A stretch of DNA of 32,252 nt from Acidobacteriota bacterium (lineage in GTDB: Bacteria > Acidobacteriota > UBA6911): the NCBI GenBank assembly GCA_016933615.1, contig JAFGAO010000249.1, positions 1 through 32,252 on the forward strand, in the 5' to 3' direction. Below the pieces are notes generated by a model that saw only the letters and a program-made list of their open reading frames with translations, searched no databases and was not told where the DNA came from. Position 1 is the first letter of the stretch. Each line of letters begins with the position of its first letter. Position numbers and translations under genes: made by a program. Shown in pieces: positions 1,820 to 32,204 of this stretch.

Positions 1820-1823
1820 AACC

Positions 1824-1839: not shown

Positions 1840-1889
1840 ATATCGAAAAGATGCCGTTCTCTTCTTGGTTCAACAGTTTGTCTGTCATA

Positions 1890-1914: not shown

Positions 1915-1989
1915 CGCTCGTGTTAAGGTTCTAAGAACAAATGGAATAGGCTTTTCCCCAGCAAAGGCAATATCGGAATTGAGGCATAA

Positions 1990-17831: not shown

Positions 17832-18500
17832 CTAGACCTGGTGCTCCTTGCGGACGACTTTGCGCGCACCACCGTACCACGCGGTGCTCCAGTCCTTGGG
17901 CATGACGATTTCTTCAAGCCGGTCCAGCTGGCCGATAGCCTTGAGACGCTTGTAAATCAGCTGCCACGCGCAGGGCCGGTCGGGATTCACTTCGCAGTGG
18001 TCCTCGGTCGATCCGCCGCACGGCCCGTTCAGCAACCGTTTCGCGCAGCGCGTCACCGGGCAGATGCCGCCGAAATGCGCCAGCACGCAATCGCCGCAGC
18101 CCAGGCATTTTTCGTTCCAGACAGCCTGCTCCTCGAGAACTCCGAGAAACTGGGTGTTGAGCCCGGCATAAACCGGCTTCTCGGGAAACCGTTCCGCGAT
18201 CGCCTGCACCCCGGCCCCGCAGGCGAACGACACCACGGCCTCGACTTTGGAAACCGGCTCCGCCAGCTCCTTCAGAAACTCGTTGTCGCACTGCCTTTCA
18301 ATCGTGATCTGGCTTATCTCGATAGGATTCCGGTCCAGCTTGCGCGCCATTCGGACCGCGTAGGACGTGATACCGACTTCGCGCTCGCCGCCGGCGAGGC
18401 ACACCGACACACAGGTTCCGCAACCGACGAACAGAACCTTCCTATGCGCCGATATGATATCCTTCAGTTCGGTTATGGATTTAGGTGAAGCAACTATCAT
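17832..18500 (-). CDS. metV: MetV, Fe-S partner of methylene-THF reductase (MTHFR C-terminal domain protein)
   Basis: A 222-residue cytoplasmic iron-sulfur protein of the MTHFR_C type, which pairs with MetF in acetogens and other anaerobes and passes electrons to its flavin. Cysteines occur in the family pattern: Cys27, Cys30 and Cys34 (VGCGTCVSVC), Cys71, Cys94 (FACGAGVQ), then a dense C-terminal set at 132, 135, 138, 147, 152, 161, 169 and 177 (KCLGCGDCVLAHFGGICPVT followed by RCAKRLLNGPCGG). The latter suits at least one [4Fe-4S] cluster. The ATG at 18500 has AGGAA eight bases upstream; a longer frame from 18590 has no homology. It is the last gene of the cluster, 96 bases after the glutaminase subunit and about 5.9 kb from metF. 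In known operons metV adjoins metF; here the glutamate synthase genes lie between them. Confidence 0.88.
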   Translation of the reverse strand: MIVASPKSITELKDIISAHRKVLFVGCGTCVSVCLAGGEREVGITSYAVRMARKLDRNPIEISQITIERQCDNEFLKELAEPVSKVEAVVSFACGAGVQAIAERFPEKPVYAGLNTQFLGVLEEQAVWNEKCLGCGDCVLAHFGGICPVTRCAKRLLNGPCGGSTEDHCEVNPDRPCAWQLIYKRLKAIGQLDRLEEIVMPKDWSTAWYGGARKVVRKEHQV

Positions 18501-18596
18501 GATATTTCCTACACTTTCTTTCTGTGGGGACCGGATGCGCACCCGCCGAAGTAAACCAAATGACACATCCCTCCCTGCAAGCTTCCTCAATGCAAG

Positions 18597-21221
18597 TCAA
18601 TAATCGTCCTCTTCAACCGGCGCTCCGCCCGCCAGCACCGAAAGTTTCACCGCGCTGACTTTCCGGTACACCTCCTGGGGCGGCCTGCTTTGGCCGCCAA
18701 CGGTCAGCAGATCCTGCACTCGTATTCCGAATAGCCTTTCATTTTCTTCAAGGTAAGGACGGATCAGATTCCAGTCCGCCTCGGTCAAAGAGGAAAGTAC
18801 GCCCCCGTTCAGCTGGCCTTTGACCACCTGTTGATGGGGATCCCGCATATATATGGCGCCGCCGCTGGCCAGCGAGAAAAGATTGCTCCCCGGATAGGGG
18901 ACCGGCTGGGGAATGAGCCGGCCCCGCCCGTCGAATTCCATCCCGTTGAGGATGACGAACCCGCCGTCGGCAAGGGGGTCGCCCGCCATGAAGGACTCCG
19001 CGAGGAAGTCCAGAGAGGTTCCGTTGATCACGACGCGGGGCCGCCCCACGGCATTGATCAAAGGCCGCCCGGCGGCGTTTCCCAGAACAAAAACCTCGCC
19101 GCCCTTGGCTCCGTACATGAATGTCTGTCCGACATCCCCGTAAATGACGAGCTTTCCGCGGTTCGCGATCTGGGCCACCTGGTCCTGGGCATTCCCGTGA
19201 ATATGAATCTCCAGACCGTCCATACCGCTGGCGGCATAGTCCCCGTCCGATCCGTAGAGATCGATGCGCACGCCGTCCGTCCTTTCCCCCAGACCGGCGC
19301 CGTGGAATCTCTGGCCGCGGAGCCGGTAACAGACAAACTTCCTCCAGCCCAGTTCGTACCCTTTGCGAATCAACAGCGCATCGCAGTCGTCGCCTTCCGG
19401 GGGAAAGCCCCGCGCATCGATGATTAATGCTTCTTCGCCTTTTCCTGGGGCGGCGATCCGTTCCCGGCTGGACCACGTCAACCGGCGCCAGTAGCCGCTC
19501 TGGGGTTCTTCGAAAAGAGGGGCGCTGTCGAAAAGCTTCTCGAGCGCATCCTCGACAACCCGGATCACGGAGGCGCGCCGCTTCTCGCCGGTGTAGTAGC
19601 GCCGGTCGTGCAGCATCGTCAGCGCCGCAATCGCGGTACGCCGCGAACCGGCGTCGCGGGCGCCCTCGACCACAAGCCGGCAGAACCGCCCGAGGTCCGC
19701 CGCATCCCAGCAGTGGAGGCCGCACGCATGGTCGAAAAGCTCCCCGGCTTCCCCTTGATCGAGATGCCCGGACACCAGTTCCTTCATGGCGTTCGGGACC
19801 TTTTCATTGCCACCGTCTTCGGGGGCCGGGTCGCACCGGACGGTGCCGGCATCCAGGGTTACGGGGCGGCCGAACTTATCCGTGCAGGTCAGCTTCTTAC
19901 CGCCGTTGCCGTTGGATTCGATGGTGAATATAAAAGCGCCGCCGTCGGTATGGGATCCTCCCCGGGCGTTCCAGTACCTGTCGGCGACGGGGCAGAAACG
20001 AAGATCTTCCGCGGCGAGGCTTCTCAGCGTCGCATCGATCGCCTGTTTCTCGGAACAGATCAACCCGATCTGGACCTCCCCGTTGTCGGACAGAGCGAAC
20101 ACCTGGGGGCGCAGCATGGAAGTGTCGGTAATGCCGAGAAGCTGAACCTTCCTCTCGTCGGGTTTGCTGCGCGCAATGATGAAAAACCAAGGCCCGTCGG
20201 GCGAGGCATGAATGTGGGTCGCCTGAATCTGGCGGTATGTCTCCTTCTTTTCCGGCGGCAGCAGGTCGAAGTCCATCTCCGTTGTCGGGGCCAGGGCTTC
20301 GATGATATATTCCAGCGGATACTTGTACACGCGGTCCCAGAGGTCGAAAAGCTGCACCGAAACCTCGGTGTCCGTCAGAAACTGCTGCCGGATGTTCCTC
20401 TGGCGCAGGTATTCGCCGACGGAGTGGTAGTTGGCGAAATCCCCGTTGTGCACCAGGGCTTCGTTGAGGCCGACAAAAGGATGGGCCCCCCCGGGGTGCC
20501 ACACCCTGCCTTTGGTCGGATAGCGCTGGTGAGCGATCCATCCGTGCGCCTTGAAATCCTGAAGCTGGTAATACTGCACGTTCTGCTCGGCGTACCCCAC
20601 GATCTTGAAGACCAGCAGGTCGCGGCCGTGCGACAGCACAAATGCCCGCTTCTCGCCCAGGGAGGCATAGTAGGCCTCGTTTAGCCTGAAGGAATTCCTC
20701 CAGACGAATTCATCCTCGAGATCCCTGGAATCCATTTTTTCAAGACCGTTCTCTTGGGCGAAGGATTCGAGCACGTCCCGCTTCACGCGCGCCACATAGC
20801 GGTGTACGTCCGGGGGGCGGACCTCCAGCCCCGGGATATCCCGGTATTCGTCGATATGGGGCTGTCTTGTGGACAGGGCCACTTCAAAGTAAGGAAGAAT
20901 GTATTGGCGCTCGAGTTCCGCGTGGCAGTCCGGATCCAGAAGAGCGATCTGGTAGAGATAGTGGCTGTCCAGAACGTCGCGGGAAACCCCGATTTGTTCG
21001 CAGGTCAATCCCACGGCCGCGATGCCGCCGCCCTTGCCGTTGCCCCGATTCTGCATCTGAATGGAAGGCTCGTAGATGAATCTCCCCGCCAGGGGGATGT
21101 TGCAGGCAAAGCCCGTGACGCCGCACCCGCCTTCCTCGGCCGATTTTGAAAATGAGGAGAGGCCGCCGGCGCCGTACGCGCGCAACCGAGTCTCCAGAAG
21201 TTGTTTGGAAAAATCTTTCAC
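18597..21221 (-). CDS. Glutamate synthase glutaminase domain fused to GXGXG domain (GltB1-GltB3 fusion)
   Basis: An 874-residue protein joining two parts of glutamate synthase large subunit without the FMN synthase domain between them. Residues 1-32 look like a cleaved propeptide before the nucleophile Cys33 (EEGGCGVTG). The class-II amidotransferase continues with HQRYPTKG (Arg near 233), VHNGD (259-261) and a TDTE segment. A linker of about 200 residues leads to a GXGXG beta-helix (about 640-800: repeated G-x-x-G turns such as IHIHGNAQDQ, VIYGDVGQT, YGAKGGEVFVLGNAAGRP, VVINGTS). The amidotransferase half would release ammonia from glutamine for the synthase subunit. In methanogens these parts are separate genes; here they are fused. 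The start ATG overlaps the stop of the FMN-subunit gene (ATGA, 21218-21221), so the two are translationally coupled. The acceptor may be 2-oxoglutarate, but the neighbours leave room for another. Confidence 0.88.
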   Translation of the reverse strand: MKDFSKQLLETRLRAYGAGGLSSFSKSAEEGGCGVTGFACNIPLAGRFIYEPSIQMQNRGNGKGGGIAAVGLTCEQIGVSRDVLDSHYLYQIALLDPDCHAELERQYILPYFEVALSTRQPHIDEYRDIPGLEVRPPDVHRYVARVKRDVLESFAQENGLEKMDSRDLEDEFVWRNSFRLNEAYYASLGEKRAFVLSHGRDLLVFKIVGYAEQNVQYYQLQDFKAHGWIAHQRYPTKGRVWHPGGAHPFVGLNEALVHNGDFANYHSVGEYLRQRNIRQQFLTDTEVSVQLFDLWDRVYKYPLEYIIEALAPTTEMDFDLLPPEKKETYRQIQATHIHASPDGPWFFIIARSKPDERKVQLLGITDTSMLRPQVFALSDNGEVQIGLICSEKQAIDATLRSLAAEDLRFCPVADRYWNARGGSHTDGGAFIFTIESNGNGGKKLTCTDKFGRPVTLDAGTVRCDPAPEDGGNEKVPNAMKELVSGHLDQGEAGELFDHACGLHCWDAADLGRFCRLVVEGARDAGSRRTAIAALTMLHDRRYYTGEKRRASVIRVVEDALEKLFDSAPLFEEPQSGYWRRLTWSSRERIAAPGKGEEALIIDARGFPPEGDDCDALLIRKGYELGWRKFVCYRLRGQRFHGAGLGERTDGVRIDLYGSDGDYAASGMDGLEIHIHGNAQDQVAQIANRGKLVIYGDVGQTFMYGAKGGEVFVLGNAAGRPLINAVGRPRVVINGTSLDFLAESFMAGDPLADGGFVILNGMEFDGRGRLIPQPVPYPGSNLFSLASGGAIYMRDPHQQVVKGQLNGGVLSSLTEADWNLIRPYLEENERLFGIRVQDLLTVGGQSRPPQEVYRKVSAVKLSVLAGGAPVEEDDY

Positions 21222-22834
21222 TTGGCTACATCCTTGGTATTGATCGAATCGTCCATGTAACAGAGGAAATCCGTCCGCCCGCGAAGGCTTTGGATCGACG
21301 GCAGGCCCAGCTTCTTCAGTACGTAGATCATCTGTTCGCGCCAGGCGTTCTGTAGGTTGATCAGCCTTTGCGTGGCCCAGTCCAGGGGCATTAAGGCCAC
21401 CATTTCGGGATCGGTGGACGCTATCCCCCGCGGACAGCCCCGTCCGCTTTCACATGTGGAGCAACGCACGCAGCCGAGAGCGATCATTTCCGTCGTGCCG
21501 ATCACGACCCCGTCCGCCCCCAGCGCGATTGCCTTCAGGGCGTCGTAGGCGGTGCGGATGCCGCCCGAAGCGATCAGGGTGACTTTCTCCCGGATACTTT
21601 CCGCGGAGAGGAATTTATGAACCTTGGGGACGGCATATTCGATGGGCATCGCGATATTTTTCTTGGCGATGTCCGGCGCCGCGCCCGTTCCGCCGTAGCT
21701 GCCGTCGAGGTGAATGATATGCGCGCCGGCATAGAAGCTTCCGACCGCCACCATGTCCACATCGGTCGGGGTGGAGACCTTGACGCTGACCAGGCAGCGG
21801 GGATTCACCTCTTTTATCCAGTCCAGGTGTTTTTTATGGTCCTCGACGCTATAGACGCTGTGAAAAGGGAACGGGCTGAACAGTGCGTTGCCCGCGACGG
21901 CTCCGCGCATCTGGGCCACATCCGGCGTGTTCTTATCCCCGAGCAGGTGCCCCCCCAGTCCCGGTTTGGCGCCCTGCGCATACTTGAATTCAACGATGCG
22001 CACGCGCCGGATCGTTTCCTCCCGCACTCCGAACAGCCCGGTCGCCACTTGGGTGATCACATGATCATCGTAGGGCTTGAGCCTGTCCGGATACCCGCCC
22101 TCGCCCGTGCATGTGAAGCTGTTCCAGGCGGTCATCGCCCTTGCCTTGGCCAGAATCGTATGGATACTGACGGATCCGAAGCTCATTCCCCCGCCATATA
22201 CGGGAATATCGATACGGATCCTGGGCCGGTTGTCGCCGCGGCGGTTCAATTCCAGACCGGTATCCGCTTCCGGGCCGGAATTGGATGCCGGATCCTCAGG
22301 CTTATCCGCCAGAGCCCTATCGGGTTCGGAACCGTCCACTTCAAACTTGAACCGGATCCTGTCAAAGCCGCCGCCGGATTCTCCAAGGCGGTATTCCAGA
22401 TGGGCGGGCGGTCTATGTCCGGTTTCCGCCATATGCCATGTAGCCAGGACAAGATCGCTGGACCACCGGGGATCCCCTAGGCATTCGGCATTGGGGTTCA
22501 ACCGGACGCGGAGGGCATGGACCGGACACTGGCTTACGCAGTCCTGTCCTGTTTCCAGGCAGGCGGGGCCGATGCATCGATAATCCTGCGGCCGTATCGT
22601 GTATTTGTAACCTTCCGGCTTCGCGTGGACGCCGTAGGAGCAAACCTCGGCGCAGCGGCCGCAGGCGATGCAGTTCGCCAGCCGGTCCACTTTGAACTTT
22701 CCGATGGCGTTGCGGTACCGGTCGGGAGCCGGGCGGACTATGCGCTCCACGGTCTCCTGCGGATAATCGCTGTTCCCCGGACGCTGGTACCGTTCGTTGT
22801 TTTGCCTTTTCAGATCGGCGATGGTTGTCGTCAT
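21218..22834 (-). CDS. Ferredoxin-domain glutamate synthase FMN subunit (archaeal GltB2 type)
   Basis: The synthase core of 538 residues. An N-terminal two-cluster ferredoxin has Cys55, 58, 61, 65 (CIACGRCAEVC) and Cys87, 92, 99, 103. The FMN-binding TIM barrel follows, with YGGGMSFGSVS near 215, the CTGEGG and FKYAQGAKPGLGGHL catalytic loops, YGGTGAAP near 370, and the flavin phosphate loop IASGGIRTAYDALKAIALGA. The glutamate synthase cluster motif is at Cys455, 458, 461 and 467 (CVRCSTCESGRGCPRG). It should accept electrons through its ferredoxin domain rather than from a GltD NADPH subunit, which is absent here, and aminate 2-oxoglutarate with ammonia from the adjacent glutaminase subunit. 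The ATG at 22834 has AGGGG seven bases upstream. It is coupled to the next gene by a four-base overlap. Confidence 0.92.
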   Translation of the reverse strand: MTTTIADLKRQNNERYQRPGNSDYPQETVERIVRPAPDRYRNAIGKFKVDRLANCIACGRCAEVCSYGVHAKPEGYKYTIRPQDYRCIGPACLETGQDCVSQCPVHALRVRLNPNAECLGDPRWSSDLVLATWHMAETGHRPPAHLEYRLGESGGGFDRIRFKFEVDGSEPDRALADKPEDPASNSGPEADTGLELNRRGDNRPRIRIDIPVYGGGMSFGSVSIHTILAKARAMTAWNSFTCTGEGGYPDRLKPYDDHVITQVATGLFGVREETIRRVRIVEFKYAQGAKPGLGGHLLGDKNTPDVAQMRGAVAGNALFSPFPFHSVYSVEDHKKHLDWIKEVNPRCLVSVKVSTPTDVDMVAVGSFYAGAHIIHLDGSYGGTGAAPDIAKKNIAMPIEYAVPKVHKFLSAESIREKVTLIASGGIRTAYDALKAIALGADGVVIGTTEMIALGCVRCSTCESGRGCPRGIASTDPEMVALMPLDWATQRLINLQNAWREQMIYVLKKLGLPSIQSLRGRTDFLCYMDDSINTKDVAK

Positions 22835-22874
22835 GCGTTCCCCTATGTAATCAATTATCAGGCAAGTACGGGTA

Positions 22875-24335
22875 TCATGCCGTCACCGGCTCCATCGGCA
22901 TCCGGTCCAGATCGCCGAATGCCTCCTTCTCAATTTCTTCCCTGAAGATCGCCCGGCCGACCTCGCCGCGCAACCTGCGCACCTCGCGGATCCCCATGGC
23001 GCCCAGAACCTCAATCAACTGGCTGTGCCATGCCCCCATGAGATTGACCATTCGCCTGGCCGCGTAATGGAGATCGCCGGCCGCGCTCTTTATGGGGCAT
23101 TCCGGATCCCTGAATTCGGGGGAGCCGAGGTCGGCCCCGTCTATAAGCAGTGAATGGGCGTTGAGGCAGACACGGCACCCGAGCGCCACTAAAAGTGCGG
23201 TATCCGCCGCGACAAGGTCGGATCCGCAGATGATCGCTTTGGCCATATGCTCCGCAAGGGCGATCCCGCCCGAAGTGATCAAAGTGATTTCATCCCGGAA
23301 GCCTTCCCCGACCAGGCGGCCGTGAATTTCCCGCAGCGCGTCTTTGATGTGCCGGCCGGGCGTGCCGTCACCCCCTCTCTCGCGCCCGTGCGGGTCGGCG
23401 CACAAATGAAAAACCTTGAGCCCCTTACCCGCGAGCGCGACCAGGCGGTCGGCCGTATCCGGACGAAGCGTCATCCGGACCGAAACAATGCTCCGGGGCT
23501 TCAATTTCCGGACTTCGGCCGCCGCGGCGTCAATTTCTGGACCGTCCGGCAGCTGGATCATGCTGCTGGAATTTCTTATCAGATCCCGGCGCTTTTCAAT
23601 GTCTTCTGCGCTTACGATCGGGACAACGGAACCAAGGTCGCTTTCGGGCACTGCTGCCGCATCGCGGGCAAACAGCACGGCCACCGTTCCGAGACGGCGC
23701 GCCGCCGCGGCGCGGGCCAAGGCCAGCCCGGTTTCCCGGACGGGCCAGGCGGGTATGTCCAGAATCACCGGCAGGGGAATCTCCAGAAGGTGAGCCGGCG
23801 GGGTAATCATTCTCCCGTCGGGCGAAAACTCGAGGCGCATCGGCTTCGGCCCTATATCCACGGAGGTCGAGATGTACTCCCTTCCATGGATGCCGTCCCT
23901 TGTGGGACGGACGATCTCCGACATGTCCGTCCAGATCGAATCAAAACCGGTGCCGTGAAAAGGCCCCCGGTAACCGGCGCCGGACACGGGAATTTTCCCC
24001 GCATCGGCCTGGACCCATGTGGTGTGAATGATGTCCGGGGTCCAGTATTCGTCCCCCATTTCCAGGTACTCCGGATTGATCGAAAGGCTGAGCAGTCCCT
24101 TGGTGCACCCCTGCACGCAGGAAAAACATGCCTTGCACTCGTACAGCGGCCGCAGCGCCGCCCGGGGATCCCGGTTGTGAAGCGCCTCGTGTTCGTGGAC
24201 TTCGTAATTGCAGCGGGGTTTGACGCATTCGGAGCAGCGCGCACAGTCCTCGCGCCAGTCGATGCCGCCGAACTTGCCCACGCGGTAGAAGCGCCCGGGG
24301 GTAATGGTGGTGTGAATATGATAGCGATCCGGCAT
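22875..24335 (-). CDS. Divergent glutamate-synthase-like ferredoxin/FMN-domain protein
   Basis: A 486-residue paralogue of the gene beside it. Two four-Cys ferredoxin sites are intact at the N-terminus: Cys31, 34, 37, 42 (CARCSECVKPRC) and Cys67, 70, 73, 77 (CKACFSCVQGC). The C-terminal half aligns with the end of the synthase barrel: ITLITSGGIALAEHMAKAII parallels the other protein's SGGI flavin loop, and the last 80 residues match closely (RRMVNLMGAWHSQLIEVLGA). The middle differs: the GEGG, KPGLGG and YGGTGAAP loops are missing and the barrel is shortened. The CxxCxxC...C cluster motif is reduced to CRVC followed by a distant CP. So it may be a non-catalytic electron-transfer or structural subunit. 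The ATG at 24335 has AGGGTGAG upstream. It lies between metF and the canonical FMN subunit, 42 and 40 bases from each. Confidence 0.82.
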   Translation of the reverse strand: MPDRYHIHTTITPGRFYRVGKFGGIDWREDCARCSECVKPRCNYEVHEHEALHNRDPRAALRPLYECKACFSCVQGCTKGLLSLSINPEYLEMGDEYWTPDIIHTTWVQADAGKIPVSGAGYRGPFHGTGFDSIWTDMSEIVRPTRDGIHGREYISTSVDIGPKPMRLEFSPDGRMITPPAHLLEIPLPVILDIPAWPVRETGLALARAAAARRLGTVAVLFARDAAAVPESDLGSVVPIVSAEDIEKRRDLIRNSSSMIQLPDGPEIDAAAAEVRKLKPRSIVSVRMTLRPDTADRLVALAGKGLKVFHLCADPHGRERGGDGTPGRHIKDALREIHGRLVGEGFRDEITLITSGGIALAEHMAKAIICGSDLVAADTALLVALGCRVCLNAHSLLIDGADLGSPEFRDPECPIKSAAGDLHYAARRMVNLMGAWHSQLIEVLGAMGIREVRRLRGEVGRAIFREEIEKEAFGDLDRMPMEPVTA

Positions 24336-24377
24336 TTGAATCTCACCCTAAAGTTTTGTTGATATCCGAAAATCAAT

Positions 24378-25307
24378 TCAAGGGACACGGACCGGATTCC
24401 CGGCTCCGATCCCGGCCTGTTCGATGACCGCCGCGACTATTTCCGGCACATCCCCGCTGAGAATATGGATCCCGCGCACTTCCGGCATGGATTTAAGCTT
24501 CGCAGCCATTTCCGACGCGATCGCGACGCCTTCCGCGGCGGCATCCGCAGCCCCGTCAATCCTGGCCAGGACGGCATCGGGGATGGGGCCGTATATCCCG
24601 GTCCGTTTCAGTTCCCGGGCCTTTTCGAGATCCGCTATCGGCATCACGCACGGGATAACGGCGGCGCGTTTATCCAGCCCGGATTCCCGCAGAGCCTCCA
24701 TCCACAATTCAAAGCCCTCAAAATCAAAAACCGCCTGAGTCAACAAAAAATCCGCCCCCGCGGAAATTTTCTTTCTGATGTAGAGGAGATTGAGTTCCAT
24801 GGGGCGCAGGTACGGCTGCGCAACGGCCCCGACCAAAAATCCCGGTTTCTTCGTCAATTTGTCGCCGCCCAGCCCCGCACCGTGAAGGATCATGTCTTTC
24901 AGGGCATGAATCAGCTGGACCGGGTCCAGATCGTTTGCCGCCGCGGCCTGCGGGCAGATGCTTATGGACTGGTGGTTGCCCGCGACGCAAAGGATGGCCG
25001 GAATATCCAGTGCCGCGGCTCCCAGAGCATCGCTCATCAGGGCGATTCTATTGCGGTCCCGCGTCGTCATGGCCATGATGACGTTGCGGCGCCCCTGCCG
25101 CTTCAGTAAAGACGCCGTGGAGAAAGACGAACTTCGGACCGCATCGGGGTTATCCGCCACAACGACCGCATCGAGGTTTGCGGGAAGCTTCTTTGAAAAG
25201 TCCTTGACGAAAACCGCATCCGCTCCCCGGGGGGGAAGGCACTCCGCAGTCACTACCAGCCGGCCCGAATTCAAAACCCGGGCAAAATTATTGGTCTCCG
25301 ATGTCAT
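24378..25307 (-). CDS. metF: 5,10-methylenetetrahydrofolate reductase MetF
   Basis: A flavin TIM-barrel enzyme interconverting methylene-THF and methyl-THF, 309 residues as usual. The catalytic Glu lies in VTAECLPPRGAD near residue 22; the early strand NLDAVVVADNP, the conserved SSFSTASLL/VIMAMTTRDRNR pair and the GFLVGAVAQPYLRP region follow, then LLTQAVFDFEGFELWM with the folate-binding Gln/Phe. The nearby MetV and MvhD genes place it in the anaerobic MetFV type, which takes electrons through Fe-S partners, rather than the stand-alone NADH-using type. It can supply methyl groups for methionine or run as the methyl branch of the Wood-Ljungdahl pathway; no other pathway genes are in the window. 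Its ATG lies 20 bases inside the mvhD reading frame, showing operon coupling. Confidence 0.92.
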   Translation of the reverse strand: MTSETNNFARVLNSGRLVVTAECLPPRGADAVFVKDFSKKLPANLDAVVVADNPDAVRSSSFSTASLLKRQGRRNVIMAMTTRDRNRIALMSDALGAAALDIPAILCVAGNHQSISICPQAAAANDLDPVQLIHALKDMILHGAGLGGDKLTKKPGFLVGAVAQPYLRPMELNLLYIRKKISAGADFLLTQAVFDFEGFELWMEALRESGLDKRAAVIPCVMPIADLEKARELKRTGIYGPIPDAVLARIDGAADAAAEGVAIASEMAAKLKSMPEVRGIHILSGDVPEIVAAVIEQAGIGAGNPVRVP

Positions 25308-25896
25308 TCGCGGTATCCGTTCCCGCCCGGGAATTCTTTCCGGGCGCTTCAGCGGCGTCCATGAGCCGTAATGGATTTGGGGGGAGAATCTCGAGAGCCT
25401 TGGCGGTCTGCTCCAGAATCGAAGCGATTTTGTGCTTCAGGGATTCGGGGTCTTTCGTTTCTTCCTTTTTTCCCGCCGTTGCAAGCATGTCCTCAGCCGC
25501 AGAGCCCGGGAGGAAAAACATTCGCAAGCGCTCCTGGCCGAGTCCTATTTCTTCAAGGATGGACTGGACGAATTCCACACGGCGGGAACACCGTTTACTG
25601 CCCTCGATATAATGGCAGTTTTCTCCCTCACAGGCAATGACCGCAACCAGGTCGGCGCCGGATTCGAAGGCTTTCAACAGATGTTCGGGCTGAATGCGTC
25701 CGGCGCAGGGCACCGTAATCTGTCGAACCGGGACCGGCCATTCGAACTCCGGCAGCATGGGCCTGGACCGCCGGGCCGAGGTGGCCGCTTTCCCGGGACG
25801 CGCGCAATTTGCGCAAATGAAAACGCTTACGGTAGCATTCCGGCCATCCTCGTCCTGCGGAATCGCTTCGGTTTCAATCTCCTTTTGTTTATTCAT
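25288..25896 (-). CDS. mvhD: MvhD-type hydrogenase/heterodisulfide reductase iron-sulfur subunit, C-terminally extended
   Basis: A small [2Fe-2S] electron-transfer protein, the adaptor that links hydrogenase, formate dehydrogenase or MetF to heterodisulfide reductase in methanogens and acetogens. Conserved Cys28 and Cys31 (FICANCARPG), Cys64 (VPCAGRIQPEHLLKAFESGA), Cys89, Cys94 and Cys103 (ACEGENCHYIEGSKRC) match the family. Residues 135-202 are an extra tail with a predicted helix (KHKIASILEQTAKALEILPP) and a disordered end; typical MvhD is about 140 residues. The ATG at 25896 fits the family and has GTGGA upstream; an earlier ATG at 25938 adds 14 unlike residues. It overlaps metF by 20 bases. 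The HdrA it would normally dock on is absent from the window, so its partner here is likely one of the neighbouring FMN/Fe-S proteins. Confidence 0.88.
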   Translation of the reverse strand: MNKQKEIETEAIPQDEDGRNATVSVFICANCARPGKAATSARRSRPMLPEFEWPVPVRQITVPCAGRIQPEHLLKAFESGADLVAVIACEGENCHYIEGSKRCSRRVEFVQSILEEIGLGQERLRMFFLPGSAAEDMLATAGKKEETKDPESLKHKIASILEQTAKALEILPPNPLRLMDAAEAPGKNSRAGTDTANDIGDQ

Positions 25897-25958
25897 TTTT
25901 CCACTAAACCTTGTCAATAGTGTTGTTTCAATAAACATGGCGGCATGGAAGCCGTAGT

Positions 25959-25987
25959 ATTTTATCTCAACACATATGGATTCACAA
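25959..25987 (-). promoter_or_regulatory. Candidate sigma-70-type promoter upstream of mvhD
   Basis: On the minus strand TTGTGA (25987-25982) and TAAAAT (25964-25959) are separated by exactly 17 bases, a 4/6 and 5/6 match to the consensus hexamers. Transcription would start near 25952, about 55 bases before the mvhD ATG. If real, the mvhD-metF-glt-metV part has a housekeeping promoter in addition to the sigma-54 promoter before the Cys-rich gene. Confidence 0.45.
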
Positions 25988-26006
25988 CCGGTCGTCCGGC
26001 CTTTCT

Positions 26007-26333
26007 TTATGCCGCGGACCTGGAATATCCGGTTTGAGCCGGGGGTGGCAGTCCGGCTTCGTCAAGCACATATTCCTCGCAATGCACCACGCCGCGGCGC
26101 GCATCGGGAAAGCCGCATGTGCGGACATTCAGGCAGTTTGAGCAAATTCCCAATCGAGCCGCATCGTTGGCGTCGAGGAATCCCGCGGCGTCCGGTTCCG
26201 CGGGACCCTCTTTTACGGACGGCCGGGCACAAAATTCTTCGCATTGAACAATTTCCAGTTGCGGACTGCGCCTGAGAGTGCAGGAATCCTCGCGCGCACA
26301 GGCTTCGCAAAGGCCATGGTATTTTATCGCCAC
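26007..26333 (-). CDS. Small protein with two repeated four-Cys modules
   Basis: A 108-residue protein I cannot name. It contains two copies of C-x2-C-x5-C-x11/12-C-E-E-[FY]: Cys9, 12, 18, 31 (LCEACAREDSC then VQCEEF) and Cys64, 67, 73, 85 (ICSNCLNVRTC then VHCEEY), joined by a polar linker. Eight conserved-looking Cys in a duplicated pattern suggest two zinc-ribbon or Fe-S sites. The start is GTG at 26333, with AGGA about nine bases upstream and the -24/-12 promoter 45 bases away. It is the first gene of the metF/glutamate synthase set, 110 bases before mvhD. A metallochaperone, an Fe-S carrier or a small regulator are all possible. Two modules sharing a CEE[FY] ending make chance translation unlikely. 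Confidence 0.75.
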   Translation of the reverse strand: MAIKYHGLCEACAREDSCTLRRSPQLEIVQCEEFCARPSVKEGPAEPDAAGFLDANDAARLGICSNCLNVRTCGFPDARRGVVHCEEYVLDEAGLPPPAQTGYSRSAA

Positions 26334-26377: not shown

Positions 26378-26394
26378 AGCAAGGAGCATGCCAA
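26378..26394 (-). promoter_or_regulatory. Sigma-54 (-24/-12) promoter of the Cys-rich/mvhD/metF/glt/metV gene set
   Basis: The minus strand reads TTGGCATGCTCCTTGCT, a full match to the RpoN consensus YTGGCAYR-N4-TTGCW, with GG and GC exactly ten bases apart. Transcription would start near 26367, giving a leader of about 34 bases to the GTG at 26333. The element shares TGGCATGC-N3-TTGCT with the one at 7160-7176. Confidence 0.75.
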
Positions 26395-26630: not shown

Positions 26631-29417
26631 TTAGAAGGTGTATTTCAGGGCAATTTCGATCTCCCTGGCGTTATCGGCGCTGCGGATCACCCCGAAAGTG
26701 GGATCGGCATAGAAATACTCGGGCGTCCACAACCCTATGTAACTCCCCGGCCGTCCCAGATTCACATGGTTGAAAGCGTTGAAGAACTGAATCCTGAAAT
26801 CGAGCAGGTGTCCGCTATGGGTTACCCTTGTGCTTTTCAGCAGGCTGATGTCCCACTGGGTCGATCCCGGGGACATCAAAATATTCCGGCCGGCATCGCC
26901 GAACCATTGAGGATCGGAACCTCCGTAATCGGGCACCGAGAAATCGGAAGTTTCGAACCATTTGCCGATGGTTCTTTCTTCACTGGAAAGAGTTCCGGGA
27001 CCGATGCGGTTGGGGCGATCGCCCCAGAGCCCGTCGTTGTTCGGATCTCCGAAGATCTGCACGCTGAACGGCTCGCCGCCCTGTATGGACGTGATGCCTG
27101 AAATCCTCCAGCCTTCAATCACCTGCGCCAATTTACCAGCCCACCGGCTCGAAAGCATTTTGTCCTTGCCCACCGGCAGGTCCAGGATGTAATTCACCCT
27201 GAAAGTTTTCATCGGCCTGTTTCCCCAAATCGCGCGTTCGGCCTTCAGGTTGCGGGGATTGTTGGGATTGGCCATCATCCACCCCCAGGAGTCGCTAATG
27301 GCTTTGCTCCACTGGAAATCGGCGCTCAAGGAAAATAAATTAGTCAGCCTGCGCGTCACGCCGACCTGCATCCCGTTGCTGGAGAGGGACGCATCGCTTT
27401 TCAGTATTTCCATGAGGCCGTATCCCGGGTTGGGACGCTTGCTCTGGATGTCGCCCGGACCCGGCAGTGGGACATTCGCCGGAATGACCCGGTGATACCG
27501 GTCCGATTTTGATCCCTCGTAGGTCAGTTCGAGGCTCCAGTTGGGCAGAAACTCGTAATGAATCGACAAACGCCGCTCCTGGGTAAAGGAGTTGCGCAGA
27601 TTCGGGTCCGCGGCCTTGAAATTCAAGGCGGGGATGGCGGCGGATTCAAAAGGATTGCCCAAATCCAAATTGGGTTCGAGCGGCGACTCGGCCCTCTCGG
27701 TATAAAAAAACGGGTAGTTTCGCCCCATGTAGGTCAGCGCCATAAAGGGATTCATATCCTGGTTCCGGATCGAATAGGACGCGCGAATCATCAGGCGGTT
27801 GTTGCCAAGAGGACTGTAGGCGACCGCAGCGTTCGGCTGCCAGTCGTTGGTGTCGTTGTAGGCGGCATGACCCGGCTCCAGGCGGAGGCCGAGCGACCGG
27901 GCGCGGTCGCTGCCCGTGACGATGACTTCTCCGTCCAGGGGCGGCTCGAAAACCAGGGGATAGAAGAAGGAAACATTGTCGCGTTCGGAATGGAAAAACG
28001 GGGAATAGGAATAGGCCAACCCCATGGTAAGGGTGAAGTGTCGGCTGATTCTCCAGCTGTCCCGGATGGAAAACTCCCAGGACCGCTGTCTCAGATCCAG
28101 CCGGTCGGAGCCGATTCCGCGCGTGGCCGTGTAGGGAATGCCAAGGAGAAAATCCGCGAAGGAGTCGCCGGTAAAAAATCCCGAGAAACCGAACTGGCCC
28201 CGGCGCATCCCGGGGGTTCGCATGTCGTTCAGGTGGGTGAGCATCACCCGGCCGCCGAACGAGATTGTATGGTCGCCGCGCACGTAGGTGTAGTTCGAAT
28301 CGATTCTGAAGCGGTTCTCATGCATGCTTTGAGGGGCTCCGCTTGAAAAGCCGAATCCGCTGAATCCTCCGGATCCGATCCCGGCGTACTGCTGCAGATC
28401 GATATTGGGATACCCTTCATCCATGGAATCCAGTATCTGCAGGCCCTGTATGCCGAATGAAGCGAGCAGACCGTCCTGGAAGGAAAATTCCGAAAGCGTC
28501 AGGCTGACTTCCCGGCTGAAACTCAAATCGATATTCAATACCTTGTTGGCGCCGAAAGAATGGGTCAGATCGATCGACAGATCCTGACGCCTCATATCGT
28601 CCGTGGTTCCGAAGCTGGGGAGGGAGGCCGTGCTTTTCCGGCTGCCGTCGCTGAGGTTGTAGGTACCGAAGATCTTGGTCCGGGGGCTCAACTCGTAATC
28701 GATGCGTGCGGATATGGTGTTGTCGTTCTGGACCATCGGCTCGCTGTTGACGTAATTGTACCCGATGCCGCTGATGTTCGGCTCCGGGAAAGCCGAGAGA
28801 AGATTCGCGGCTACCGGATGAATGCGGGACTGGGGAATGCGGTTATCCTCAAACGGCAAACCCGTATCCGGATCGTATAGTATAAAGGCGTCGCTTTTCC
28901 AGGGTATGCTGCCGAAATCCCCCTGTTTCATGGCGGCCGTGGGCACCAGCGAGGTGCGGGTGGATCCCCGGATGATGCGCAGGCCGTCGTAGCCGCCGAA
29001 AACCTTCAGTTTGTCGGTGACGAAAGCCCCGAGGCTGAGTCCGAACTGGTTGCGCTTGTATTCGGGCTGTTCGCTGGGGTCGAAGGCGTTGCGCGCATCG
29101 AAATTGTCGTTCCGGTGGTATTCATAAACGGATCCGTAATACCGGCCGCGTTTGCGCACGGTGAAGGGATTGACGATCAGGGCGGTCTCCTCATCCGCGC
29201 CGGCACTCTCGGTCTGCCAGGATTCGTCCATCTTCACTTCGAATGATTCGATCTGCTCGAGATCGGGCAGGACATGCATCTCCAAATCATCGCCCGGACG
29301 ATTTTCTCGACTTTCAGCCTGCTCCTGCCCGGGTTCTTTTGCCCCGGTTTCCTGGCCGTAAGCCGCTGCCGCCGTCAGGCAGAAAATCAGTAATGTGAAT
29401 ACTGTGCGTATATTCAT
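26631..29417 (-). CDS. Oar-like TonB-dependent receptor/outer-membrane beta-barrel with shortened N-terminus
   Basis: A 928-residue outer-membrane protein. A signal peptide (1-22, FTLLIFCLTAAAAYGQ) is followed by about 75 polar, acidic residues and then the sequence typical of Acidobacterial Oar-like receptors: YGSVYEYHRNDNFDARNAFD, a KRNQFGLSLG stretch with KVFGGYDGLR, then VPTAAMKQGDF, LYDPDTGLPF, NRIPQSRIHPVAANLLSAFPEPN, and a long barrel ending in ALKYTF with terminal Phe. Normal members start with a carboxypeptidase-regulatory-like domain, a TonB box and a full plug; here that region (about 200 residues) is largely missing. It may be an independently evolved channel or a shortened receptor. 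The ATG at 29417 has AAGGA about nine bases upstream. It follows the small secreted protein gene by 58 bases on the same strand. Confidence 0.87.
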   Translation of the reverse strand: MNIRTVFTLLIFCLTAAAAYGQETGAKEPGQEQAESRENRPGDDLEMHVLPDLEQIESFEVKMDESWQTESAGADEETALIVNPFTVRKRGRYYGSVYEYHRNDNFDARNAFDPSEQPEYKRNQFGLSLGAFVTDKLKVFGGYDGLRIIRGSTRTSLVPTAAMKQGDFGSIPWKSDAFILYDPDTGLPFEDNRIPQSRIHPVAANLLSAFPEPNISGIGYNYVNSEPMVQNDNTISARIDYELSPRTKIFGTYNLSDGSRKSTASLPSFGTTDDMRRQDLSIDLTHSFGANKVLNIDLSFSREVSLTLSEFSFQDGLLASFGIQGLQILDSMDEGYPNIDLQQYAGIGSGGFSGFGFSSGAPQSMHENRFRIDSNYTYVRGDHTISFGGRVMLTHLNDMRTPGMRRGQFGFSGFFTGDSFADFLLGIPYTATRGIGSDRLDLRQRSWEFSIRDSWRISRHFTLTMGLAYSYSPFFHSERDNVSFFYPLVFEPPLDGEVIVTGSDRARSLGLRLEPGHAAYNDTNDWQPNAAVAYSPLGNNRLMIRASYSIRNQDMNPFMALTYMGRNYPFFYTERAESPLEPNLDLGNPFESAAIPALNFKAADPNLRNSFTQERRLSIHYEFLPNWSLELTYEGSKSDRYHRVIPANVPLPGPGDIQSKRPNPGYGLMEILKSDASLSSNGMQVGVTRRLTNLFSLSADFQWSKAISDSWGWMMANPNNPRNLKAERAIWGNRPMKTFRVNYILDLPVGKDKMLSSRWAGKLAQVIEGWRISGITSIQGGEPFSVQIFGDPNNDGLWGDRPNRIGPGTLSSEERTIGKWFETSDFSVPDYGGSDPQWFGDAGRNILMSPGSTQWDISLLKSTRVTHSGHLLDFRIQFFNAFNHVNLGRPGSYIGLWTPEYFYADPTFGVIRSADNAREIEIALKYTF

Positions 29418-29475
29418 ATTTGGTTCCTTGCGGCGCCTGCAGCTGCGGCAATGAAAATTAACGGGATGACGGTTA

Positions 29476-30174
29476 TTAGATAATGATCCGGCCATCGACA
29501 ATCATCGATTCCACGTCGAAGGTGGCACGAAGTCGGGAATCGGTTCCCGGGACATCGAGCAGTTCGAGACTGACGTTCGAGCACTCTTTCGTAATTACGG
29601 GCAGCCCGTCAAACTCCCTCGGAAATACGAATTTGGCGCCGACGCTTTCTTCTTTGGGCGGGAAGTAGGCGACGATTTCCACCTGGGGGCAGCTAGCCGT
29701 GGAGAGAAAGGCTTTTGTTTTCATGGTTTCGACGGTCTGACTCTGGAAAAAGCGCCGAACGCTGCTTTCTTCATTCGGATCGTTCGAACGGAAGCTGACG
29801 GACAGGACAATCAGGTTTGTCACATCAAGGTCCAGCCTCGCCGACTGCGCCTTTTCAAACTGGCGCCTTTTTTCGGGAAACATCGTGCTGTACCCATGCC
29901 GGATCTGCTGGACCCGGGCGTAAGCCTCCCTTATGGGGCGGGCGGACAGAAACCTCACATAAAATGTGCTGTAAATTTCTTTTTCACCGGAAACCCCGCT
30001 GCCGACTCCGCGGATGACCCGCGTAAAAGTCTCCTGCCTGGCCCAGGGGGAATCATTCAGCACTTTGACGGCTTTATCCAGGGACCATTGATGAAACGGC
30101 TCCACATTGGTCCAAGAAGTTGCGGCAACCGCCATCAGGGGGGAAAATAACGCTATAATTAAGAATCTGAACAT
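29476..30174 (-). CDS. Small secreted acidobacterial-type protein
   Basis: A 232-residue protein with a cleavable signal (1-17, FRFLIIALFSPLMAVAATSW) and no further membrane segment. The mature start contains WSLDKAVKVLNDSPWARQET, a pattern I associate with small uncharacterised acidobacterial proteins often found near GWxTD-domain proteins. The C-terminal half (about 140-232) is beta-rich, with two Cys (SCPQVE, TKECSN). Function unknown. I chose the ATG at 30174 because the signal sequence begins there; an ATG four codons earlier (30186) is preceded immediately by AAGGA. It is between the KaiC/sigma-54 regulator and the TonB-like gene, all on the minus strand, and is likely co-transcribed with the latter. 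Confidence 0.72.
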   Translation of the reverse strand: MFRFLIIALFSPLMAVAATSWTNVEPFHQWSLDKAVKVLNDSPWARQETFTRVIRGVGSGVSGEKEIYSTFYVRFLSARPIREAYARVQQIRHGYSTMFPEKRRQFEKAQSARLDLDVTNLIVLSVSFRSNDPNEESSVRRFFQSQTVETMKTKAFLSTASCPQVEIVAYFPPKEESVGAKFVFPREFDGLPVITKECSNVSLELLDVPGTDSRLRATFDVESMIVDGRIII

Positions 30175-30392
30175 AACAGGATCCATTCCTTATTTACTCA
30201 TAGCTTCCATCGACCTCGAAGTTACTAATAGTACAGTATAATCGGGCATCCGCAAAAGGCTTTCTCCCGGCGCGCCGTACAATGGGCAGAATACGTTTAG
30301 GGCTTGGTACTGTTACGTATATCGAAAGAGCCGGGCCTGGTTTTGTCCGTTCCCGACTGTGAGGAAGCACGGGTTTTCGCAGGTGGCCGGCA
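30175..30392. other. Intergenic region between the sigma-54 activator and the small secreted protein
   Basis: This 218-base gap contains the perfect 11-base palindrome TACTA-A-TAGTA (30223-30233). On the minus strand there is also a TATACT -10-like hexamer nearby but no matching -35. I see no -24/-12 element and no terminator with a U-tract. Confidence 0.45.
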
Positions 30393-32204
30393 TCAGGAAA
30401 TACCGTAGCGGGCCAGCTTTTTCCGCAGAGTCACGCGGCTGAGCGACAGGAGATTCGCCAGTTCGCGCTGGCTGTAGCGGCCCGAATCCACGAAATAGCG
30501 CAGCACGGTTTCCTCCACAGCATCCACAACGGTATCGCGGATCCCTGTCGGGTCGTTGCTGGACGCCAGCAGTCTGATGACCGCCTGGCGAAGCTGCGCC
30601 CGGGTATCTTCGTATGCTGTCGATGCGGCCGGGAAAAATTCATCCGGGCGATTTTCCCGGATCTCCTCAGGAAGAAGATCGAGGGATAGGCCGTTGCCCG
30701 GGCTCATGACCACCGCACGCTCGATGCAGTTTTCCAGTTCCCGGACGTTTCCCGGCCAGGAATATGCCAGAAGCGCATCCAGAACTTCTCTCGGAACCTG
30801 CGCCACATGCCGTTTGGCCTCACGGTTGTATTTTTCCAGAAAGTGATCCACCAGCAAAGGTATGTCCTGCCTGCGATCTCTCAAAGGGGGCAAACGGATC
30901 GGAATGACGTTCAGGCGATAGTAAAGGTCGTGACGGAATCGCCCGGAGCGGATCTCGGATTTCAGATCCTTTCCCGTAGCCGCGACGATACGAACATCGA
31001 CCGCAATGGTCCGGCTGGATCCCACGGGTTCCAGCTGTCTTTCCTGAAGCACGCGCAGAAGTTTGATCTGAAGACGCGGGCTCATTTCGCTGACTTCATC
31101 CAGGAAAAGGGTTCCCCCGTCGGCGGCGCGGAACCTGCCTTCGTAATCCCGGACAGCCCCGGTAAAGGCCCCTTTCACGTGGCCGAACAGTTCGCTTTCA
31201 AGAAGCGTTTCAGGAAGAGCCCCACAATTCATTTTCACCAGCGGGCCTTCCGCCCGGTCGCTGTTGTAATGCATGACGTTGGCGATCAGTTCCTTGCCGG
31301 TTCCCGTTTCTCCCGTTATCAGTACGGAGGAGCGTGACCTGGCGGCTGTCGCGGCGATCCCCAGCAGGCGCCGGATGGCGGCGCTTCCGCCCACGATACT
31401 GTCGACGCGGTATTTTCTGCGGAGCTCCTCGCCCCGGCGCGTCATCCGGTCTATTCTTTGTTCGTACCCGTATTCGCTTTCGGCCGGCGGGGGTTCCACG
31501 TCCAGGTCCAGGGGCTGCGGGACGCCGATTGCGGCTTTTCTTCCTGCGGCCTTATGGATGGTCAGCGCCCGCTGCCCGTTTGCAAGAGACACCTCTATCA
31601 CGACCTGTGTTATGTGCCGGACTTTGGCCAGGAACGCATCGCTGTGAGCGTCCTTCTCAATCAGCCAGTAAGCCAGGGTCGAAAGATCGTACAGCCTCGG
31701 ACACAAATGCCCGAACAGACGCACCACGCGGTTTTCATCCCCCCATAAATCCAGCATTCCGGTAAGGGAATCGAAAACGTAGTTCGCCGACCGGCCGTCG
31801 CGGGTGCCCACTTCGATAAGGGCCTGCTCCAGGCGCGCCGGGTCCGAAGGATCGGCGATATGGACCGGGGCATGAACCGCGTTGCGGGCCGGATCGTCGA
31901 AAAATTTCAGGAACATATCGTCGCTGTTGCCCTTGCCCGAGGAAAAGCAGTCTATCAAAGAGAAGCGCCCGGGCGACATCAGGCGGGCATACTTGGACGC
32001 GATTGTTTGCGGAGACCGGTTGAAGCTGACGTAAACGACGGGGATTCCGTCCTGCTCGCAGGAAGAGAGGAAGCTGGAGATGAAATGATCCCCCGCCACG
32101 CCGGAATCTATTTCCCAAACGAGGTTGTCTCCGGGAATGACTCCCCCGACGGCAAGGTCCACTTCGGCAATTCCGGTTGTCGCTCTGCCCGTTGGCGCCA
32201 TCAT
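30393..32204 (-). CDS. KaiC-like domain fused to a sigma-54 enhancer-binding AAA+ regulator
   Basis: A 603-residue activator of RNA polymerase sigma-54. Residues 1-225 resemble a KaiC/RadA-type RecA-fold domain (TTGIAEVDLAVGGVIPGDNL opening, VVYVSFNRSP, a Walker-B-like NYVFDSLTG near 141-149), but the P-loop that should read GxxGxGKT is EIDSGVAGDH, without the Lys, so ATP binding is doubtful. A charged linker leads to the AAA+ domain (268-495): Walker A GETGTGKE 298-305, the sigma-54 contact loop GAFTGA 345-350, Walker B GGTLFLDE 363-370, the FRHDLYYRLN region, and WPGNVREL. A Fis-type helix-turn-helix ends it (577-600, YSQRELANLLSLSRVTLRKK). There is no receiver domain, so the KaiC-like part is the likely sensor. 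A promoter abutting the ATG suggests a leaderless message; the second ATG (32201) is an equally good start. Confidence 0.9.
   Translation of the reverse strand: MMAPTGRATTGIAEVDLAVGGVIPGDNLVWEIDSGVAGDHFISSFLSSCEQDGIPVVYVSFNRSPQTIASKYARLMSPGRFSLIDCFSSGKGNSDDMFLKFFDDPARNAVHAPVHIADPSDPARLEQALIEVGTRDGRSANYVFDSLTGMLDLWGDENRVVRLFGHLCPRLYDLSTLAYWLIEKDAHSDAFLAKVRHITQVVIEVSLANGQRALTIHKAAGRKAAIGVPQPLDLDVEPPPAESEYGYEQRIDRMTRRGEELRRKYRVDSIVGGSAAIRRLLGIAATAARSRSSVLITGETGTGKELIANVMHYNSDRAEGPLVKMNCGALPETLLESELFGHVKGAFTGAVRDYEGRFRAADGGTLFLDEVSEMSPRLQIKLLRVLQERQLEPVGSSRTIAVDVRIVAATGKDLKSEIRSGRFRHDLYYRLNVIPIRLPPLRDRRQDIPLLVDHFLEKYNREAKRHVAQVPREVLDALLAYSWPGNVRELENCIERAVVMSPGNGLSLDLLPEEIRENRPDEFFPAASTAYEDTRAQLRQAVIRLLASSNDPTGIRDTVVDAVEETVLRYFVDSGRYSQRELANLLSLSRVTLRKKLARYGIS

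What the first reader, a model, noticed from the sequence alone, without database searches (positions are those of the whole stretch)
17832..26333. MetF, MetV and MvhD grouped with glutamate synthase modules instead of HdrABC: possible new redox complex
Seen: seven minus-strand genes reading Cys-rich protein, mvhD, metF, a divergent ferredoxin/FMN protein, a canonical ferredoxin/FMN glutamate synthase subunit, glutaminase+GXGXG, and metV, with overlaps at mvhD/metF and FMN subunit/glutaminase. Known: in acetogens MetF-MetV acts with HdrABC and MvhD in proposed electron bifurcation or confurcation. Inference: here the Hdr flavoprotein is replaced by glutamate-synthase-type FMN/Fe-S subunits, so the methyl-THF/methylene-THF couple may exchange electrons with glutamate synthesis or with a derived reaction. 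Placing metV at the far end of the glutamate synthase genes argues that the set is functionally one unit.
Basis: partly seen in the sequence, partly recalled or inferred. Interest (0 to 1): 0.85.

Follow-up and report, generated by a model that had tools for sequence, protein, structure and literature searches.

The report
Glutamate synthase wired to MetF-like flavoprotein
In this bacterium, and in many unrelated ones, the genes of a nitrogen-assimilating enzyme (glutamate synthase) are built into one gene cluster with redox proteins best known from the carbon metabolism of acetogens, which suggests an unusual way of powering glutamate synthesis.

Summary
The seven genes are real and form one tight minus-strand run. 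The arrangement is not local: among 80 named relatives (by MAG title, more than a dozen phyla) the order MvhD-MetF-divergent FMN protein-FMN synthase-glutaminase/GXGXG recurs. "Instead of HdrABC" is wrong as a general statement. Of 37 loci of this type with room downstream, 35 carry Hdr genes after the glutaminase gene; the two without belong to the window's genus. The window's own genome holds hdrC-hdrB-hdrA-mvhD-metV-metF elsewhere. The set is best read as a nitrogen-assimilation glutamate synthase: catalytic motifs are kept, ammonium transporter, PII, glutamine synthetase or GlnD genes lie in 17 of 80 loci (AmtB about 50-fold over expectation), and the window operon has a sigma-54-type promoter and a sigma-54 activator gene close by. 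The link to methyl-/methylene-THF is doubtful here: the operon MetF has Asn where MTHFR needs its invariant Asp (lost in 49 of 52 relatives with MetV not adjacent, kept in 16 of 16 with MetV adjacent). Likely mechanism: MvhD/MetV/MetF-like, plus Hdr and NAD(P)H modules in relatives, form the electron-input arm of a modular glutamate synthase. Electron bifurcation is possible but unproven.

The parts
17832..18500 (-). metV-like (ORF opens at 18590; homologues start at 18500)
   Evidence: PF12225 129 bits; homologues align from ORF residue 31
18597..21221 (-). class II glutaminase + GXGXG beta-helix subunit (874 aa)
   Evidence: PF13522, PF01493; GGCGV, HQR.PT.G, HNGD and TDTE residues invariant in 27 of 27 aligned rows; predicted fold matches only glutamate synthases at E<=0.001
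21218..22834 (-). ferredoxin + FMN synthase subunit of glutamate synthase
   Evidence: PF01645 294 bits; synthase motifs kept
22875..24335 (-). divergent ferredoxin/FMN-barrel subunit (dFMN)
   Evidence: hhalign to the GltB synthase domain E 1.7e-8; best Foldseek matches are FMN-barrel enzymes, TM-scores low; eight invariant ferredoxin-type Cys in 44 rows
24378..25307 (-). MetF-like flavoprotein lacking the folate-anchoring Asp (Asn111)
   Evidence: PF02219 79 bits; residue table
25288..25938 (-). MvhD-like iron-sulfur subunit
   Evidence: PF02662 97 bits
26007..26333 (-). Cys-rich 108-aa protein, first gene of the operon
   Evidence: no family; homologues in 7 of 8 genus operons
26378..26393 (-). 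sigma-54 (-24/-12) promoter-like site TGGCATGCTCCTTGCT, 60 nt upstream of the first gene
   Evidence: 10 of 11 consensus bases; sites of 10 or 11 bases in 6 of 8 genus operons against 0.05 expected per region at 9 or more
30393..32204 (-). sigma-54-dependent activator, probable regulator of the operon
   Evidence: PF00158 232 bits; intact near the operon in exactly the six genus genomes that have the 10-11-base site

Best explanation
The locus encodes a split, probably nitrogen-regulated glutamate synthase (GOGAT) with an unusual electron-input arm. Shown: the glutaminase/GXGXG and FMN subunits keep motifs of the glutaminase and synthase sites; the genes form one conserved unit with MvhD, MetF-like and MetV; the operon has a sigma-54-type promoter sequence and an activator gene, and some relatives sit beside ammonium-assimilation genes. 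Inferred: glutamine is hydrolysed by the glutaminase, ammonia reaches 2-oxoglutarate at the FMN site, and glutamate is formed there. Electrons reach that FMN through the ferredoxin domains of the FMN and dFMN subunits from MvhD and the MetF-like/MetV flavoprotein pair, a module derived from the acetogen HdrABC-MvhD-MetVF complex. In relatives this arm also holds Hdr subunits and an NAD(P)H module (GltD-like insert in HdrA, or NuoE/F-like genes in its place). In the window these parts are absent in cis, so reduced ferredoxin or the HdrABC encoded elsewhere probably supplies electrons. The MetF-like subunit has most likely lost ordinary folate chemistry and serves as flavin relay or scaffold.
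For: Family assignments. Synthase motifs: 68 of 231 columns invariant in five canonical GltB are at least 95% kept in 20 operon FMN proteins, including GEGG, QVAxGxFGV, KPGxGG, R310, K352, GGTGA and three Fe-S-type Cys. Fold of the glutaminase/GXGXG protein: the 5 PDB matches at E<=0.001 are all glutamate synthases. Nitrogen genes in 17 of 80 named loci over 479 kb of flank: AmtB in 13, PII 11, GlnA 6, GlnD 3 loci; all 14 such proteins given to Pfam were confirmed, 12 from named loci and 2 from genus loci. AmtB density in 28 such genomes is 58 per 116 Mb (summed by hand), so about 0.24 expected. AmtB also in genus loci L029 (= L048), L031, L032. Sigma-54 site and intact activator co-occur in 6 of 8 genus operons; in L026 both are decayed. 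Hdr and NADH modules in relatives. MetF Asp lost.
Against: No biochemistry; complex formation is inferred from gene order only. Four of the genus genomes (G122, G180, G196, G250) also carry a canonical full-length GltB, with GltD-like genes beside it by eye, and all 9 examined have a PF00208 (GDH-type) dehydrogenase, so the set is not the only route to glutamate. No nitrogen gene was found in the window with these queries, and 63 of 80 named loci show none in the flanks held, many of them short; the 17 positive loci include close relatives of each other. Sigma-54 regulation is not specific to nitrogen. 163 of 231 canonical invariant columns are not kept at the 95% level. Both models have pLDDT 73.9, and the Foldseek matches have low TM-scores (0.28-0.43 for the glutaminase protein against glutamate synthases).
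Confidence: 0.6

Rival explanations
1. Methyl-THF-coupled glutamate synthase: MetF/MetV oxidise methyl-THF to methylene-THF and pass the electrons to the glutamate synthase modules, or the reverse.
For: MetF, MetV and MvhD are in one conserved unit with the synthase. In the second layout MetV and MetF are adjacent and MetF keeps E, D and Q (16 of 16), with GlnA, PII, AmtB or GlnD nearby in seven such loci (L067, L069, L081, L093, L095, L111, L124). Potentials (recalled: about -200 mV for methyl-THF, well above that for Gln + 2-OG) would allow it.
Against: In the window and 49 of 52 relatives with MetV not adjacent, the Asp is gone; D120N leaves 0.3% of kcat and raises Km more than 40-fold in the E. 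coli enzyme (PMC11094777, passage). 17 of 17 checked genomes of that layout have another PF02219 match outside the operon.
Confidence: 0.17
2. Electron-bifurcating glutamate synthase: HdrA-type flavin splits NAD(P)H electrons, one branch to the exergonic GOGAT reaction, the other to ferredoxin. The window copy is a reduced form that uses Hdr in trans or has lost the coupling. (Overlaps with the best explanation, as its stronger form.)
For: HdrA with inserted Fer4_20 + Pyr_redox_2 (GltD-like) domain in L046, L049 and L119, and HdrB and HdrC, behind the synthase genes; in L066, L100 and L110 NuoF-like NADH modules in that place; 35 of 37 comparable loci carry Hdr genes.
Against: No Hdr in cis in the window, L045 or L048; second-layout loci mostly lack Hdr in the stretch held (11 of 14). 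No GltD-like insert was seen in the HdrA of L063 at E<=1e-8. Gene order cannot show bifurcation, and the downstream Hdr genes could serve another acceptor.
Confidence: 0.2
3. Separate functions merely co-located: a plain ferredoxin-dependent glutamate synthase next to a redundant MetF/MetV/MvhD set.
For: The core also occurs without MetF, with a GlcD-type FAD oxidase (L034-L038, L040) or with no recognised partner (L033, L039).
Against: The order holds across phyla; 45 of 80 loci read MvhD-MetF-dFMN and 15 MvhD-MetV-MetF-dFMN, and the MetF residue change tracks the layout.
Confidence: 0.12

Closest known systems
Glutamate synthase (NADPH-GltBD, ferredoxin-GltS)
   Same: class II glutaminase, FMN synthase domain with Fe-S Cys, GXGXG helix
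   Different: split into subunits with glutaminase and GXGXG fused and FMN separate; extra dFMN subunit; no GltD gene in the window operon; MvhD/MetF/MetV input genes
HdrABC-MvhD-MetVF (Moorella-type Met complex; PMC5736913, PMC6085437, PMC7325909, passages)
   Same: MvhD, MetF and MetV in one operon; relatives add Hdr subunits
   Different: glutamate synthase core inserted; MetF lacks the invariant Asp; Hdr absent in cis here
HdrL / type III HdrA (HdrA with GltD insert; PMC2702500, PMC12054007, passages)
   Same: HdrA of relatives L046, L049, L119 and of the own-genome C162 operon have the same kind of insert
   Different: the passages read do not place it beside glutamate synthase modules
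Putative F420-dependent glutamate synthases of ANME archaea (PMC9012536, passage)
   Same: glutamate synthase subunits clustered with a redox module from anaerobic C1 metabolism
   Different: FrhB paralogue as input, not MvhD/MetF

Membership tests
glutamate synthase | class II glutaminase site (Cys after propeptide, Arg, Asn-Gly, Asp motifs) | tested here: met
   C33, R233, N259-G260, D284 invariant in 27 of 27 rows; which motif residues matter is recalled
glutamate synthase | FMN synthase domain PF01645 with core motifs and Fe-S Cys | tested here: met
   294 bits; motifs
glutamate synthase | GXGXG beta-helix | tested here: met
   PF01493 47 bits
glutamate synthase | central domain between glutaminase and synthase | tested here: inconclusive
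   dFMN matches the synthase domain (E 1.7e-8) better than the central domain (E 0.0044)
glutamate synthase | glutamate formed from glutamine + 2-oxoglutarate | not testable with these tools
   needs enzyme assay
NADPH-glutamate synthase (GltBD) | GltD subunit in the operon | tested here: not met
   no GltD-type gene among the seven; a GltD-like domain sits in HdrA of several relatives
MTHFR (MetF) | catalytic Glu (E. coli E28) | tested here: met
   E22
MTHFR (MetF) | invariant folate-anchoring Asp (E. coli D120) | tested here: not met
   N111; GD motif position tied to solved MTHFRs through own paralogue L041
MTHFR (MetF) | pterin-binding Gln (E. coli Q183) | tested here: met
   Q191
HdrABC-MvhD-MetVF complex | HdrABC with MvhD, MetV and MetF | tested here: not met
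   no Hdr gene in the window operon; present in relatives and in C162 of the own genome

The most novel reading that the evidence does not exclude
A widespread flavin-based electron-bifurcating glutamate synthase: the exergonic GOGAT reaction serves as high-potential acceptor of an HdrABC-MvhD-type bifurcating complex fed by NAD(P)H, so that anaerobes recover ferredoxin-level electrons during ammonium assimilation. A former MetVF module is the adaptor, its MetF having lost folate binding. The window genus carries reduced versions that show which parts are the minimal unit.
Probability: 0.22. Interest if true: 0.88.

Novelty: new variant of a known kind. Interest (0 to 1): 0.7.

Why it matters
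Glutamate synthesis is a core step of nitrogen assimilation, and known glutamate synthases take electrons from NAD(P)H via GltD, from ferredoxin, or (proposed) from F420. This operon family points to a further input arm built from acetogen-type C1/Hdr redox parts, spread over many mostly uncultured lineages. If it works as proposed, it changes how the electron budgets of these organisms are drawn, and it warns that metF/metV/mvhD genes in such genomes should not automatically be read as Wood-Ljungdahl pathway enzymes.

Tried and rejected
Rejected: (a) 'Hdr replaced by glutamate synthase modules' as a general rule. (b) dFMN as the stand-alone central domain of GltB: suggested by weak profile hits, not supported by hhalign (four GltB) and not decided by the fold search (FMN-barrel enzymes in general). 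(c) HdrA split by selenocysteine codons in ten loci such as L066: many stops of all three kinds lie between the pieces, and in the six loci looked at with a long ORF in the gap that ORF looks alike and is NuoF-like in the three given to Pfam. (d) The set as sole glutamate route: canonical GltB in four genus genomes and a GDH-type gene in 9 of 9. (e) Distance correlations between subunits were too confounded by shared ancestry to use; MetF against the core gave 0.33-0.40, HdrB/C against the core 0.70-0.80, core pairs 0.39-0.66. N-methylglutamate synthase was considered from memory only and not tested. Alignment A2 seemed to place the dFMN rows on the FMN half of the fused query and was not used for a structure job; only its FMN rows were reused, ungapped. 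The script failed and was corrected. One search picked a wrong-strand ORF as GltB in L155; corrected. The pairing of genome places with operons and the sums were done by hand.
Full report
Observation. The seven ORFs exist at the stated coordinates on the minus strand and belong to the stated families. Gaps between genes are -20, -4, 40, 42, 68 and 96 nt. The 96-nt gap takes MetV to start near 18500, because its homologues begin at ORF residue 31. The Cys-rich first gene matches no Pfam or NCBIfam model.

How widespread. A search with the divergent FMN protein (dFMN) found it in 15 of 297 genomes of the phylum, including 8 of the 9 genomes of the window's genus in that sample. Their record titles and lineage labels name Acidobacteriota, Myxococcota, Actinomycetota, Planctomycetota, Thermodesulfobacteriota, Chloroflexota, Bacteroidota, Ignavibacteriota, Fibrobacterota, Armatimonadota, Verrucomicrobiota and several candidate phyla. 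L045-L049 are the named versions of genus loci L026-L030. All 80 records are titled MAG, and many contigs are cut short.

Layouts. In the 80 loci the recognised genes before dFMN read MvhD-MetF in 45, MvhD-MetV-MetF in 15, Cys-rich-MvhD-MetF in 4, MvhD only in 8, MetF only in 5, MetF-MvhD in 2 and MvhD-MetV in 1. After dFMN come the FMN subunit and, where the contig reaches, the glutaminase/GXGXG protein. Layout 1 means that the operon MetF lacks the Asp described below. Of 37 such loci with at least 2.5 kb of room behind the glutaminase gene, 35 carry Hdr genes there, 28 of them HdrB and/or HdrC. The other seven of these 35 rest on HdrA alone, and each matches the HdrA query over stretches of 300 to 1321 aa. 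L063 shows the complete series MvhD-MetF-dFMN-FMN-glutaminase-HdrC-HdrB-HdrA-MvhD-MetV. The HdrA of L046, L049, L119 and the own-genome L041 contain Fer4_20 and Pyr_redox_2 domains, a GltD-like insert; in L063 no Fer4_20 was seen at E<=1e-8. This fusion is known as HdrL or type III HdrA (PMC2702500 and PMC12054007, passages). In L066, L100 and L110 a NuoF-like gene stands between two HdrA pieces, and 2Fe-2S thioredoxin-like or Fer2_4 domains are attached to the pieces tested. In loci whose MetF keeps the Asp, 3 of 14 have Hdr genes in the stretch held.

The window as a reduced form. In the genus no HdrB or HdrC was found in the stretches held of the 8 operons; HdrA is present in L027, L028, L030, L031 and L032 and absent between glutaminase and MetV in the window, L026 and L029. 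MetV is in all 8. In the dFMN tree the window groups with L045/L026, and L029/L048 lies on another branch with HdrA-bearing loci (support 86), so HdrA was probably lost twice. The own genome (82% complete) has five PF02219 matches; contig C162 carries HdrC-HdrB-HdrA-MvhD-MetV-MetF. So 'instead of HdrABC' describes members of this genus, not the family.

The MetF. At the position of the invariant Asp (GD motif; E. coli D120, T. thermophilus D109) the window has Asn111; own paralogues L041-L044 have Asp, and the GD motif of L041 aligns with that of solved MTHFRs. Among 68 operon MetFs of at least 270 aa in the named loci, Asp is kept in 16 of 16 where MetV is adjacent and lost in 49 of 52 where it is not (exceptions L054, L101, L105). 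The replacements vary widely. The Glu28 and Gln183 equivalents are mostly kept, though neither is in the Myxococcales loci L056, L057, L059 and L060. D120N in E. coli leaves 0.3% of kcat with Km up more than 40-fold (PMC11094777, passage), and the Asp is called invariant and catalytically essential (PMC9900621, passage). All 17 layout-1 genomes checked have another PF02219 match outside the operon. An ordinary folate role for the window MetF is therefore unlikely, though not excluded. The tree puts 53 layout-1 rows, 4 unread ones and 3 Asp-keeping ones in one branch of 60 (SH-aLRT 98, quick tree); the other 16 Asp-keeping rows lie outside.

The synthase core. The glutaminase/GXGXG protein keeps GGCGV, HQR.PT.G, HNGD and TDTE residues in 27 of 27 aligned rows. 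Its model (pLDDT 73.9) matches only glutamate synthases in the PDB at E<=0.001 (5 of 5), with low TM-scores of 0.28-0.43. The FMN protein keeps 68 of 231 columns that are invariant in five canonical GltB, including those of the motifs named above and three Fe-S Cys; which residues bind 2-oxoglutarate is recalled, not tested. dFMN has eight invariant ferredoxin-type Cys in 44 rows. Its profile match to the synthase domain covers only residues 263-436, and its model (pLDDT 73.9) resembles FMN-barrel enzymes with TM-scores of 0.33-0.42 on the query. I take it as an electron-wiring or structural subunit. More distant members of the phylum pair the core with a FAD_binding_4/FAD-oxidase_C-type dehydrogenase (L034-L038, L040) or with no recognised partner (L033, L039) (Pfam for L037), which suggests exchangeable electron inputs.

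Nitrogen context. AmtB lies in 13, PII in 11, GlnA in 6 and GlnD in 3 of the 80 named loci (17 loci with any; 479 kb of flank). All 14 such proteins given to Pfam were confirmed, 12 from named and 2 from genus loci. AmtB occurs 58 times in 28 such genomes of 116 Mb (my sum; fragments counted), so about 0.24 would be expected in the flanks. Genus loci L029 (the same contig as L048), L031 and L032 have AmtB nearby. The other 63 named loci show none in the flanks held, nor does the window.

Regulation. A -24/-12 site of 10 or 11 of 11 bases stands upstream of the Cys-rich gene in the window, L027, L028, L029, L031 and L032, against 0.05 expected per region for 9 or more; L026 has only a 9-base match at the start codon and L030 none. 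A sigma-54 activator (window 30393-32204, PF00158 232 bits) lies near the operon, intact, in exactly those six. In L026 only two fragments of 81 and 106 aa remain; L030 shows none, but its contig starts 2.4 kb upstream of the operon. Outside the genus 5 of 67 tested loci had sites of 9 or 10 bases, so this promoter is mainly a genus feature; homologues of the activator also lie in L091, L107, L123 and, weaker, L100.

Redundancy. Canonical GltB is present in G122, G180, G196 and G250 but was not found in G000 (82% complete), G037 or G266; G113 has a second set of the FAD-oxidase type. One genus genome, G085, has neither. PF00208 dehydrogenases are in 9 of 9 genus genomes. The operon can therefore not be called essential for glutamate supply.

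Literature. Five searches of the open-access library (one search listed 15 of 73 papers) and passages of PMC7325909, PMC5736913, PMC9012536, PMC8097209, PMC6085437, PMC2702500 and PMC12054007 gave no description of this combination. The other listed papers were seen as listings only; preprints and most subscription papers are not held, so it may be described elsewhere.

Verdict. A real, widespread operon family; most likely a modular glutamate synthase, probably under nitrogen control, with an MvhD/MetF-like/MetV input arm that is joined by Hdr and NAD(P)H modules in relatives. Bifurcation and methyl-THF coupling are open, in that order of likelihood for the window's layout.

Noticed in passing
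L067:6072-7787, L098:7628-9223, own genome C83 (L161:7290-8915): A further PF01645-type FMN protein (L067 copy 62 bits) lies upstream of MvhD in L067 and L098 (and at the contig start of L124); by eye a similar one sits in a redox-type gene cluster of the window's own genome. It is distinct from GltFMN and dFMN.
   Followed up: no
L161:3595-4728: By eye, a protein in that cluster contains a stretch resembling the window's Cys-rich 108-aa protein (LGICSNC...CEEY), suggesting a small redox-associated Cys-rich family.
   Followed up: no
L042:3226-13683: In the own genome another MetF sits near an aldehyde-ferredoxin-oxidoreductase-like gene (by eye) and a GltD-type 638-aa flavoprotein (Pfam), with metV on the other strand.
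   Followed up: no
window 26631-30186: An outer-membrane barrel gene (PF25183) and a 236-aa gene without family separate the sigma-54 activator from the operon here; in L027 the activator lies directly upstream.
   Followed up: partly
L026:3351-3907: The sigma-54 activator survives only as two fragments in the genus genome where the promoter site is also degraded.
   Followed up: partly
window 734-3434: Genes that look by eye like a molybdate-type ABC transporter (ATPase, permease, binding protein) lie at the left of the window.
   Followed up: no
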